NCBI GenBank assembly: GCA_025062155.1
Contig: JANXAM010000014.1
Location: forward strand, 1-44,736
Direction: 5' to 3'
Origin: Gloeomargarita sp. SKYB120
GTDB lineage: Bacteria > Cyanobacteriota > Cyanobacteriia > Gloeomargaritales > Gloeomargaritaceae
DNA: 44,736 bases
A program made the position numbers and the translations under genes. The notes under the pieces were generated by a model. That model saw nothing but the letters and a program-made list of their open reading frames with translations, did not search any database and was not told the origin of the DNA. Positions 37,003-39,978 of this stretch are shown here, in pieces; the stretch's first letter is position 1, and each line of letters starts with the position of its first letter.

Positions 37003-37664
37003 GCCGCATCGTACTGCTGTTGAATGTACTGCTGGAGTTCCAGACCCGTCCCTTGCCGAGTAATGCGTCCGTCACTAAGCAACACCGCCTGGTCGCAGTA
37101 GGCGAGTTCCTCCAAGCGATGGGTCACCCACAGGGCCGTCACGCCCGTAGCTCGCACCAACTGTTGCACCTGCTGCGCCAGTTCCAGTTGCTGGTCGGGG
37201 TCGAGGAAGGCGGTCGGTTCATCCAGGAGCAGAATGGGCACCTGGCGCGCCAAAGCACCTGCAATCGCCAAGCGTTGTTTTTGCCCGCCGCTCAAACTAT
37301 AGACGGGCCGGTTGTGCAGTTCCCACAGGCCCACCAGGCGCAACGCCTGTTCCACCCGCGCGGCCCACTGTTTTCGGGGCACATCCGCCAGCCCAAAGGC
37401 CACATCCGCGCCGACGCTGGGCATCACCACCTGATGGTCGGGATTTTGCAGCACCAGGCCAACTGGACCCGCCAGTTCGACGGACCCCTGGTCTGGTTCA
37501 ATCAAACCCGCCAGGATTTTCAGCAACGTGGACTTGCCGCTGCCGTTGGCTCCCAGTAGCATCCAGAACTCCCCCTGGGGCACTCGCAACGTGCAGTCCT
37601 GGAGAGCCAGCCGCTCCGGCGACCAACCAAAGCGAACGTTTTCTAGGGCAATGGCCGTTTTCAC
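36999..37664 (-). CDS. ABC transporter ATP-binding subunit, EcfA/CbiO-like
   Basis: About 221 residues with Walker A LLGANGSGKSTLLKIL, Q-loop VLQNPDHQVV, signature YSLSGGQKQRLAIAGALA and Walker B ILLLDEPTAFLD, then the switch His in WVTHR. The V-L-Q-N-P-D-H-Q motif is characteristic of energy-coupling-factor ATPases. An EcfT-like protein is encoded at 20825, but the partner is not shown. GTG 37664 is preferred; an in-frame TTG at 37685 would add seven residues. The TnpB element ends only about 30-50 bases upstream, so the natural promoter or leader may have been displaced. Confidence 0.85.
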   Translation of the reverse strand: MKTAIALENVRFGWSPERLALQDCTLRVPQGEFWMLLGANGSGKSTLLKILAGLIEPDQGSVELAGPVGLVLQNPDHQVVMPSVGADVAFGLADVPRKQWAARVEQALRLVGLWELHNRPVYSLSGGQKQRLAIAGALARQVPILLLDEPTAFLDPDQQLELAQQVQQLVRATGVTALWVTHRLEELAYCDQAVLLSDGRITRQGTGLELQQYIQQQYDAA

Positions 37665-37685
37665 CGTTCCTAAAACTATGGACAA

Positions 37686-39392
37686 CTATCCACAGGCTGC
37701 CAACCGAACGGTACTGTTGACAACTTCCTCCGCCACCGACGGAGGCGGAGCGTGCCGGAGTCTCACCGGCAAGCCACTGCTGCACGCAAACCGCGCTCTC
37801 GGGGCGGTAGGTGGTCGGTCATCTCCAGCTGGTGGTAGCTGGAGACTCGCACGACTCAGTGACTGCGGTACGACCGCCGCTAACGCCTGAGCAACTCCCC
37901 GCCAGAACGACCATACATGCTTTCCCCGATTCCTTGCAGGTAGGGAAAAGGTGACATAGCCGTCTCGGCAGGGAACAATGACTGTCCCCCGGCAAGCGGG
38001 TCGTTCACCCAGGCGCAAAACTCTTCTAGCCAACACCAACGCTGCAGCAAGATGCGGTGAAATGCCAAGTTTCCTGGCGTAATTAACCGCACCGATAACA
38101 CTGCTGTGGGCTGGGTTGACTTCACACACGTCCACCCCCGCTCTCAACGCAGCCAACTTGAGACCAGTTAAAACCTTACGATAAGCAAAACTCGACAACT
38201 GACGGCAACGGCGGGGTGATTCACTCTCTAGCTGCGCCCGTTTACGCTGAAAGTCGAGCTCTTCTACAACCAACGGCTTTCCCTTCTCTGCTGCTAACCG
38301 CGCAACCTGGGCGCAGGTTTCCAAAATCATGGCTTGTGCTTGACCAGTCGTCTTGCCGTACAGGTTCCGGTCAAACCGCCAAGACGCGACCCAGTTCCCA
38401 TACCGGTCCATTTCGGTTACGGCCAAGTGGTCAGCATTGATGTCCACACCATCAGCATTGATGTCCACACCAATAGCACCAGCCGCCAGGTTGGTCACCG
38501 GTTCTGGTCGCATTTGTTCGATACTGACGATGACTCGCCAACCACGCGCATCCAGGATGAAACGATAGTTAACGGCTGTACCGATACGCTTGGTCGTAGC
38601 TTTGCCGCTACGCGTGGTCGTGCGTACCTTCACTCCCTGTAACGCTTGCACAATTTGGTCATGACCATAGGCAAACCGAAGGCCCGTTAACTTCAGGTAG
38701 ACTTTCTTTCCTTTTTGCTCTGGTCCTGGAGACAAGTGGTCAGCAAATGAATCCACAAGGGCATCCGGCACGCGCAGATAAAGCGTGAACGTCCCGTCCG
38801 TTTCCGGTACGGCTTGGCATGATACATTACCGGCTGTCTCATCCTGACTACCAAGTACGAAAAACTGTCGAGAACGGCTAAACCGCCAGTCGGCTAACCA
38901 TTCCGCGTGAGAAGCATAACCATTAGCCGCCAGAGCAAACTGCTGGCGAAACAGTCGATTGGAACCGAAACACAGCCGTATCTTGCCACTGTGCCTATCG
39001 GCTTCCAGCCGCGACAGTTGACTTTGCAACCTAGCCAAGCACCGTTGCTTTTGGTGCAAGACAAACCGACGCTTTTCCTTCTTAATGACTCGTTCTGCCT
39101 CGCGTATTTTCTGTTGCAACTCCTCAATCGGCGTCAATTGACTTTCTTTGACAGCTTGTATGCGTCCTTCTAGTTCCACACGTGCACTGTTGAATTGTCT
39201 GGAAGTGATACCAAACCGTTGCAGGAATTCCCGTTTTGTCTGGTTTTTGTCCCGCCCCGCAGCCGTGACAGCGAATAATGACCGCTCCGCCCGGCCAAAT
39301 AATTCTGCATAGGCAGACAGCACCTGATGCTGTTCTGAGCTGGTGGCAATCCGTGCTTGGTAGCTAAACGTCAGACGCACAACCGCTGGCAC
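37686..39392 (-). CDS. tnpB: TnpB-type RNA-guided nuclease of an IS200/IS605-group element, RuvC-I duplicated
   Basis: 568 residues with a GTG start, the first possible after an upstream in-frame stop. An N-terminal helical region (about 60-130) and a barrel-like region (about 180-300) precede the split RuvC domain. RuvC-I is GVDINAD at 308-314, repeated exactly at 315-321; RuvC-II is LVVEELDF (E377); the RuvC-III region is NPAHSSVIGAVNYARK then ISPHLAAALVLARR, where His447 stands where an Asp is usual in TnpB. No C-x2-C zinc finger is seen. The last about 35 residues are read through the presumed omega-RNA and beyond the element end, and stop at TAG 37688-37686. No tnpA partner is present, so it must rely on another transposase or be stranded. 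Confidence 0.8.
   Translation of the reverse strand: MPAVVRLTFSYQARIATSSEQHQVLSAYAELFGRAERSLFAVTAAGRDKNQTKREFLQRFGITSRQFNSARVELEGRIQAVKESQLTPIEELQQKIREAERVIKKEKRRFVLHQKQRCLARLQSQLSRLEADRHSGKIRLCFGSNRLFRQQFALAANGYASHAEWLADWRFSRSRQFFVLGSQDETAGNVSCQAVPETDGTFTLYLRVPDALVDSFADHLSPGPEQKGKKVYLKLTGLRFAYGHDQIVQALQGVKVRTTTRSGKATTKRIGTAVNYRFILDARGWRVIVSIEQMRPEPVTNLAAGAIGVDINADGVDINADHLAVTEMDRYGNWVASWRFDRNLYGKTTGQAQAMILETCAQVARLAAEKGKPLVVEELDFQRKRAQLESESPRRCRQLSSFAYRKVLTGLKLAALRAGVDVCEVNPAHSSVIGAVNYARKLGISPHLAAALVLARRVLRLGERPACRGTVIVPCRDGYVTFSLPARNRGKHVWSFWRGVAQALAAVVPQSLSRASLQLPPAGDDRPPTAPRARFACSSGLPVRLRHAPPPSVAEEVVNSTVRLAACG
37716..37850 (-). ncRNA. Presumed omega-RNA (reRNA) at the 3' end of tnpB
   Basis: Three hairpins follow one another on the minus strand inside the 3' end of tnpB: tctccagct/agctggaga (37822-37830 with 37837-37845, 9 bp, 6-nt loop), 6 bp at 37753-37758 with 37766-37771, and ctccgcc/ggcggag (37728-37734 with 37744-37750). 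The last is followed by gaagttgtcaac, where the element ends. TnpB proteins use an RNA from this place as guide carrier. The guide would be the first 16-20 nt beyond, at 37715-37696. The 5' end is not defined. Confidence 0.5.
38431..38472 (-). repeat. Exact 21-bp tandem duplication over the RuvC-I motif of tnpB
   Basis: Two identical 21-bp copies lie at 38431-38451 and 38452-38472. In the protein they give GVDINAD twice in a row (residues 308-321). It keeps the reading frame and adds seven residues at the catalytic Asp. Confidence 0.9.
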
Positions 39393-39484
39393 CGCTCACT
39401 TAATTTCATGGCTAGATGCCCATATATGTATATAAGCGCGCTCACTTAATTTCATGGCTAGATGCCCATATATGTATATAAGCG
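39393..39484. repeat. Exact 46-bp tandem duplication upstream of tnpB
   Basis: Units 39393-39438 and 39439-39484 are identical. Each ends in an AT-rich catatatgtatata stretch that could act as a promoter or as a left-end structure of the element. The duplication lies between the tnpB start and the end of ndhN. Confidence 0.9.
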
Positions 39485-39492
39485 TACATACA

Positions 39493-39978
39493 TTAAACAG
39501 TTATCAACCCCTGGTCCAGGTAGGTTTTGAGAGGTTGCCAGCGAAACTCGCGGCCACTGGCGACCTCCACCACCACCTTGCAGCGGGGGTACTGGGTCGG
39601 CACCACCGTCAAATAACGCAATTCCTGGCGGGACAACACTTTGCCTTCAATCAGCCACAGTACCACGCCCTTGGCCTGGGGAGGTAACGCCGCCAGCGCT
39701 TGGTCGAGCAAGGGCGGGAAGTAGTACACATCGCCAACTGCTGCGGTTTGGGCCAGGGCTTTTCCCAAGTGGGCCGGACGCACCCCGTGAAAGCGAGTCA
39801 AAAACGCCTCCAGTTCACCCATGCCGCGCGCTGTCATATGGAGCGTGCGATACCCCGCGCCCTTCAAGCGCCGTTGATAGCGTCCTTCGTGACCGCCTTC
39901 CGGTGGCACCCACACCGCCAGCGCCCCGTGTTGCTCCAAATCCTGCTCAAACTGATTGCCAATGACAATGAGCGCCAT
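39493..39978 (-). CDS. ndhN: NAD(P)H-quinone oxidoreductase subunit N
   Basis: 161 residues, the usual length. NdhN belongs to the peripheral arm of the cyanobacterial/chloroplast NDH-1 complex, in which ferredoxin reduces plastoquinone for cyclic electron flow and respiration. Recognised by the start MALIVIGNQFEQDLEQHGAL, then EGRYQRRLKGAGYRTLHMTA, GVRPAHLGK and VVLWLIEGKVLSRQEL. The gene ends L-D-Q-G-L-I-T-V immediately before the tandem duplication of the TnpB element. Its natural downstream neighbour on this strand may have been the ABC ATPase gene. Confidence 0.9.
   Translation of the reverse strand: MALIVIGNQFEQDLEQHGALAVWVPPEGGHEGRYQRRLKGAGYRTLHMTARGMGELEAFLTRFHGVRPAHLGKALAQTAAVGDVYYFPPLLDQALAALPPQAKGVVLWLIEGKVLSRQELRYLTVVPTQYPRCKVVVEVASGREFRWQPLKTYLDQGLITV

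What the first reader, a model, noticed from the sequence alone, without database searches (positions are those of the whole stretch)
38431..38472. TnpB with an exact 21-bp tandem duplication over the RuvC-I catalytic motif
Seen: two identical 21-bp units encode GVDINAD twice (residues 308-321), the motif with the first catalytic Asp of the RuvC fold. Known: in TnpB/Cas12 nucleases this Asp ends a fixed beta-strand, so a seven-residue insertion here should disturb or re-register the site. Inference: either a recent inactivating event, or a protein in which one copy replaces the other and the extra residues form a loop. A clean duplication in an otherwise open frame suggests that it is young or tolerated.
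Basis: partly seen in the sequence, partly recalled or inferred. Interest (0 to 1): 0.65.

Follow-up and report, generated by a model that had tools for sequence, protein, structure and literature searches.

The report
TnpB nuclease with recently duplicated catalytic motif
One of four copies of a small transposon's RNA-guided nuclease gene in a cyanobacterium carries a fresh in-frame stutter that repeats seven amino acids at the enzyme's cutting site; it is most likely a young, probably damaging accident in a decaying mobile element, not a new kind of enzyme.

Summary
In detail: two identical 21-bp units encode GVDINAD twice (residues 308-321). It is private to this copy. Three paralogues in the same genome (83-85% identical) and 28 more distant homologues all have one unit. 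The gene is a TnpB of an IS607-type element that has lost tnpA: it sits at a GGG site that is empty in close relatives, homologues lie beside IS607 serine recombinases, and the last ~300 bp are conserved like an ωRNA. AlphaFold puts the FIRST Asp (D310) in the catalytic strand (it aligns with D7 of RuvC resolvases) and turns the second unit into a low-confidence loop that lengthens the β1-β2 turn. The window gene shows normal purifying selection and no other damage, so the change is recent. The same element carries a second exact tandem duplication (46 bp, just upstream); only three such duplications were found in half the genome, so this is not background. Most likely: a young mutation, probably impairing cleavage, in a dying element. 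An assembly error is unlikely but not excluded, because the assembly has an uncollapsed overlap elsewhere. Of wider interest is the clade itself: most members have His in place of the third catalytic Asp (D-E-H).

The parts
38431..38472 (-). Exact 21-bp tandem duplication, 2.00 copies, encoding GVDINAD twice (residues 308-321); RuvC-I motif
38463..38465 (-). Codon of D310, first-unit Asp; predicted catalytic Asp at the end of β1 (aligns with D7 of RuvC resolvases)
   Evidence: AlphaFold model, structural alignment, offset, single-motif control
38442..38444 (-). Codon of D317, second-unit Asp; predicted to lie in the 7-residue extra loop between β1 and β2
37686..39392 (-). tnpB ORF (568 aa with nominal GTG start; residues 1-465 under purifying selection, 466-568 overlap the ωRNA-like right end)
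38262..38264 (-). Codon of E377, RuvC-II glutamate
   Evidence: invariant in the 15-row alignment, and
38052..38054 (-). Codon of H447, His at the RuvC-III (third catalytic residue) position
   Evidence: maps to residue 143 of T. thermophilus RuvC by offset
39393..39484 (-). Exact 46-bp tandem duplication, 2.00 copies, just upstream of tnpB; single in the paralogues
39371..39409 (-). Out-of-frame leader MKLSERCQRLCV*, probable remnant of the IS607 tnpA start (compare MKLSIWAEQQGIS of an adjacent TnpA in L029)
   Evidence: sequence; TnpA N-terminus
37664..39509 (-). Whole element, from left-end GG(TTGATAAC) to right-end (GGAAC)GG, inserted at a GGG site without target duplication
   Evidence: paralogue ends; empty sites in relatives
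37664..37960 (-). Right end, ωRNA-like conserved region shared by 13 aligned copies, with predicted stems

Best explanation
A recent, in-frame 21-bp tandem duplication in one of four full-length copies of a transposase-less IS607-type TnpB element. Shown: it is derived, private to this copy and young. Inferred from the model: the first unit keeps the native strand β1 and its Asp (D310) in the catalytic position, while the second unit becomes a seven-residue insertion that stretches the 3-4-residue β1-β2 turn beside the active site to about 11 residues. Inferred, not shown: the bulky acidic loop (DGVDINAD) next to the metal site impairs or abolishes cleavage, so the copy is probably on its way to being a dead or binding-only TnpB in an element that can no longer move by itself. 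The element's second tandem duplication (46 bp, in the leader) is a separate mutation of the same kind.
For: Single unit in all three in-genome paralogues and in every homologue with the region readable, 31 in all, from cyanobacteria, Pseudomonadota, Nitrospirota, Bacillota and IMG/VR contigs. The residue just before the motif is hydrophobic (I/L/F) in all of them; it is I307 before unit 1 but D314 before unit 2, so only unit 1 can continue β1 normally. AlphaFold: E306-310, loop 311-321 (pLDDT about 57), E322-328, although the input alignment paired unit 2 with the homologues. RuvC resolvases align from residue 304 = 1, so D310 = D7; the single-motif control L021 aligns from 271 = 1, so its D277 = D7. 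dN/dS for residues 1-465 is 0.16-0.19 for pairs with and without the window copy, and the window copy departs from family-conserved positions no more often (8 of 103) than the paralogues (8, 10, 14), so there is no older decay. The units are identical at DNA level while the paralogues differ by dS 0.30-0.40; zero changes in 67 duplicated sites bounds per-copy divergence at about 0.02. The genome has no Resolvase or Y1 transposase match.
Against: No activity data. The site may tolerate the loop: the native strand, Asp, DxN, E377 and H447 are all retained, and the rest of the gene is intact. The model rests on only 12 sequences (mean pLDDT 73, pTM 0.59). Raw reads were not available.
Confidence: 0.66

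Rival explanations
1. Tolerated or useful variant: the loop insertion leaves RuvC working (perhaps slower or with other strand or metal preference) and the copy is still selected.
For: Frame open for 568 codons, normal dN/dS and no loss of other conserved residues; all catalytic residues still present; native β1 predicted intact.
Against: No homologue has any insertion in this turn; the duplication is too young for selection on the gene to testify about it; it lies beside the metal site.
Confidence: 0.2
2. Assembly artefact: one or both duplications are uncollapsed overlaps or mis-joins.
For: Two exact 2.00-copy tandems with no extra microhomology in one multi-copy element, against one other in 1.24 Mb; the assembly has N-run joins, and at one of them (C13, L110:5170-5178) 77 bp are repeated on both sides; two contig ends overlap by exactly 53 bp.
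Against: No N run at either place; overlaps seen in this assembly are 53 and 77 bp, longer than the units, so a de Bruijn assembly with that word size would need reads across the junctions (inference); no such tandems in the three other full copies or about nine short copies.
Confidence: 0.12
3. Normal double-motif subfamily of TnpB.
For: None found.
Against: All 31 aligned homologues, three of them in the same genome, have one motif.
Confidence: 0.01

Closest known systems
IS607-family TnpB (guided by ωRNA/reRNA; PMC11061315, PMC10711439)
   Same: GG-core insertion without target duplication, G-rich left flank, overlapping 3' ωRNA-like end, homologues adjacent to IS607 serine recombinases, RuvC fold with D310/E377
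   Different: About 465-568 aa instead of about 390; no Pfam match to a zinc ribbon; His at RuvC-III; no tnpA; duplicated RuvC-I motif
Cas12f / Cas12k / Cas12m (fold neighbours of the model)
   Same: Whole-length structural resemblance, Z about 11-14; short local sequence similarity to Cas12f profiles
   Different: No CRISPR context was seen or sought in detail; Cas12m2 has an H-D-D site with the first Asp changed (PMC10442227), whereas here the third is changed
RuvC Holliday-junction resolvases
   Same: RuvC fold, Z 12-14; D310 at D7, and H447 at residue 143 of T. thermophilus RuvC by offset, a position that I recall as a catalytic His there
   Different: Only a domain-level relation

Membership tests
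TnpB (RNA-guided transposon nuclease) | Sequence match to TnpB family models | tested here: met
   TIGR01766 passes its cut-off in the paralogues L002, L003 and L004 (35.2, 35.7, 32.4 bits; cut-off 32) but the window copy falls just below (29.5); NF040570 significant but below its cut-off of 100
TnpB (RNA-guided transposon nuclease) | RuvC fold with catalytic acidic residues | tested here: inconclusive
   Fold matched; D310 and E377 present; third residue is His in this clade
TnpB (RNA-guided transposon nuclease) | ωRNA from the transposon right end | tested here: inconclusive
   13 copies conserve about 290 bp up to the end, with a consensus fold and 16 of 66 pairs showing double changes; no Rfam match; transcription not tested
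TnpB (RNA-guided transposon nuclease) | RNA-guided DNA cleavage | not testable with these tools
   Needs a biochemical or plasmid-interference assay
IS607 family element | Insertion at a GG dinucleotide without target-site duplication | tested here: met
   Filled site CCAGGGG...AACGGTGA against empty CCAAGGGTGA in same-genus genomes; rule from PMC6188088
IS607 family element | Serine-recombinase TnpA beside TnpB | tested here: not met
   Absent from the window element and no Resolvase match in the genome; present beside homologues L019, L025, L029, L031, L035, L122, L123, L132. Hence filed as a tnpA-less derivative, not a complete IS607
IS200/IS605 family element | Y1 transposase TnpA | tested here: not met
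   No Y1_Tnp match in the genome

The most novel reading that the evidence does not exclude
A TnpB caught in the act of losing cleavage, and perhaps turning into an RNA-guided binder, by one in-frame stutter at RuvC-I, within a clade whose third catalytic residue is already His (D-E-H).
Probability: 0.1. Interest if true: 0.5.

Novelty: new member of a known kind. Interest (0 to 1): 0.24.

Why it matters
As an allele it is a natural loop-insertion test of the RuvC β1-β2 turn, with single-motif paralogues in the same genome as controls. As a clade, IS607-linked TnpBs with a D-E-H site and no recognised zinc ribbon are a lead on how far the TnpB/Cas12 active site can vary. The duplication itself is most likely an ordinary mutation.

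Tried and rejected
Double motif as a family trait: rejected, 0 of 31. Older pseudogene: rejected for the protein core by dN/dS and conserved positions. General excess of tandem duplications in this genome: rejected, three in 1.24 Mb. Hairpin-driven slippage: folds of the two units are not unusual. Promoter or terminator scan of the element: nothing above chance. Rfam: no RNA family. PDB by sequence: only weak local matches to Cas12f and Cas12m. Phages: only distant partial Thermus matches. Papers on a duplicated RuvC motif in TnpB or a D-E-H TnpB site: none found in the held library.

Full report
WHAT IS THERE. The minus-strand ORF 37686-39392 (568 codons) contains two identical 21-bp units at 38431-38472 and reads ...NLAAGAI-GVDINAD-GVDINAD-HLAVTEMDRYGN.... 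The motif is RuvC-I of a TnpB: NCBIfam TIGR01766 and NF040570 match the protein, weakly in the window copy and better in its paralogues; Pfam shows no zinc-ribbon or OrfB model. A second exact tandem duplication of 46 bp lies at 39393-39484, directly upstream of the nominal GTG start.

DERIVED AND PRIVATE. The same genome (2.48 Mb, 91 contigs; the window is contig C14) holds three more full-length copies, 83-85% identical, and all have one GVDINAD. One of them, L004, holds the first 20 bases of the unit without a mismatch, once. Homologues from other phyla, plasmids, viral contigs and other cyanobacteria, 28 with the region readable, also have one. The 46-bp unit is likewise single or shorter in the paralogues. 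So both duplications arose in this copy.

AGE AND SELECTION. Pairwise dS between the copies is 0.30-0.40 and dN/dS for residues 1-465 is 0.16-0.19, whether or not the window copy is in the pair; the window copy departs from family-conserved positions 8 times in 103, the paralogues 8, 10 and 14 times. The gene was under normal constraint until recently. Zero differences in 67 duplicated sites puts the per-copy divergence since duplication below about 0.02 at 95%, if sites are near neutral and both events are of one age. From residue 466 on, dN/dS rises to 0.35-0.75: this part overlaps the right-end RNA-like region and is probably not constrained as protein.

WHICH ASP. AlphaFold2 on the window protein with 11 homologues gives β1 at 306-310, a low-confidence loop at 311-321 and β2 at 322-328. 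In the single-motif control L021 β1 is 274-278 and β2 282-288. RuvC resolvase structures align from model residue 304 = 1 for the window protein and 271 = 1 for the control, so D310 and D277 both fall on D7 if the first seven residues align without a gap. This was so although the input alignment had matched the second unit to the homologues. A simple reason is visible in the sequences: the residue before the motif is I, L or F in every homologue; it is I307 before unit 1 but D314 before unit 2. The picture is therefore native β1 and Asp, plus a seven-residue acidic insertion in the hairpin turn beside the metal site. Whether that stops cleavage is inference; I think it more likely than not.

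THE ELEMENT. The paralogues share a left end (GGTTGATAACTG...) and a right end (...TTTTAGGAACGG). Same-genus genomes have the empty site: ndhN ends ...CCAAGGGTGA, overlapping the GTG start of the ABC-transporter gene; in the window this reads CCAGG-element-GGTGA. That is insertion at a GG dinucleotide with no target duplication, the IS607 rule (PMC6188088; PMC10711439). At least eight homologues lie beside an IS607-type serine recombinase (annotated as IS607). The window element has none, the genome has neither Resolvase nor Y1 transposase, and a 12-codon out-of-frame leader, MKLSERCQRLCV (MKLSEW... in the paralogues), resembles the start of the TnpA in L029, MKLSIWAEQQGIS; I read it as the stump of a deleted tnpA. 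It is a tnpA-less IS607 derivative, not a complete IS607.

THE RIGHT END. About 290 bp up to the right tip are conserved in 13 aligned copies, nine of them in short elements without tnpB; RNAalifold gives a structured consensus with 16 of 66 pairs showing changes on both sides, though these copies are closely related. Rfam has no match. It is the expected place and kind of sequence for an ωRNA; expression is untested.

ACTIVE SITE OF THE CLADE. At RuvC-III the window protein and most homologues have His (GISPHLAAALVLARR), while a group of cyanobacterial relatives has Asp (GLSSDTAAALVLARR). By offset H447 lands on residue 143 of T. thermophilus RuvC and 138 of E. coli RuvC, which from memory are catalytic His and Asp there. 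A D-E-H site could thus be active; Cas12m2, by contrast, has H-D-D and does not cleave (PMC10442227). This is a property of the clade, not of the duplication.

ARTEFACT CHECK. In 1.24 Mb of the genome only three exact tandem duplications with units of 13 bp or more occur, two of them here; such clustering asks for a reason, biological or technical. The assembly has short N-run joins, one of which repeats 77 bp on both sides, and two contig ends overlap by 53 bp, so uncollapsed overlaps do occur in it. Against this, neither array has an N run, and both units are shorter than those overlaps. I give an artefact 12%.

VERDICT. Low to moderate interest; the D-E-H clade and the family of short ωRNA-bearing elements around it are the better leads.

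Noticed in passing
L042-L049, L052 (own genome, contigs C1, C2, C9, C17, C20): About nine short elements (roughly 450 bp where the left end was seen) carry the same right end (ωRNA-like) and, in most, a related left end (GGGTAGGCAACTGTTGAAC) but no tnpB, plus a shared module ending ...CCAGCCTGCCAAG...TCCACGG. They look like non-autonomous relatives that could share TnpB in trans.
   Followed up: partly
window 38052-38054 and the alignment: RuvC-III position is His in most members of this IS607-linked TnpB clade and Asp in a cyanobacterial subgroup, i.e. a D-E-H instead of a D-E-D site; L123 has Gly there.
   Followed up: partly
window 39393-39484: Second exact tandem duplication (46 bp, 2.00 copies) in the leader of the same gene, including the ATG of the tnpA remnant.
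   Followed up: yes
window 37660-37669 and 39500-39519: The insertion splits a GTGA stop/start overlap of ndhN and an ABC-transporter ATPase gene; the element's ends appear to supply four new C-terminal residues and a stop for ndhN and to restore the GTG start of the other gene.
   Followed up: partly
L110:5093-5256 (G000 contig C13): A 9-base N run flanked by a 77-bp exact repeat, probably an uncollapsed contig overlap in the assembly.
   Followed up: partly
L005, L012, L017 (G000 contig C27:101-954): A degenerate full-length-like tnpB copy with several stop codons, at a contig end.
   Followed up: no
L090:7075-7121 (G000 contig C6): The only other exact tandem duplication found, within a run of GGTACATC/GATGTACC repeats.
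   Followed up: no
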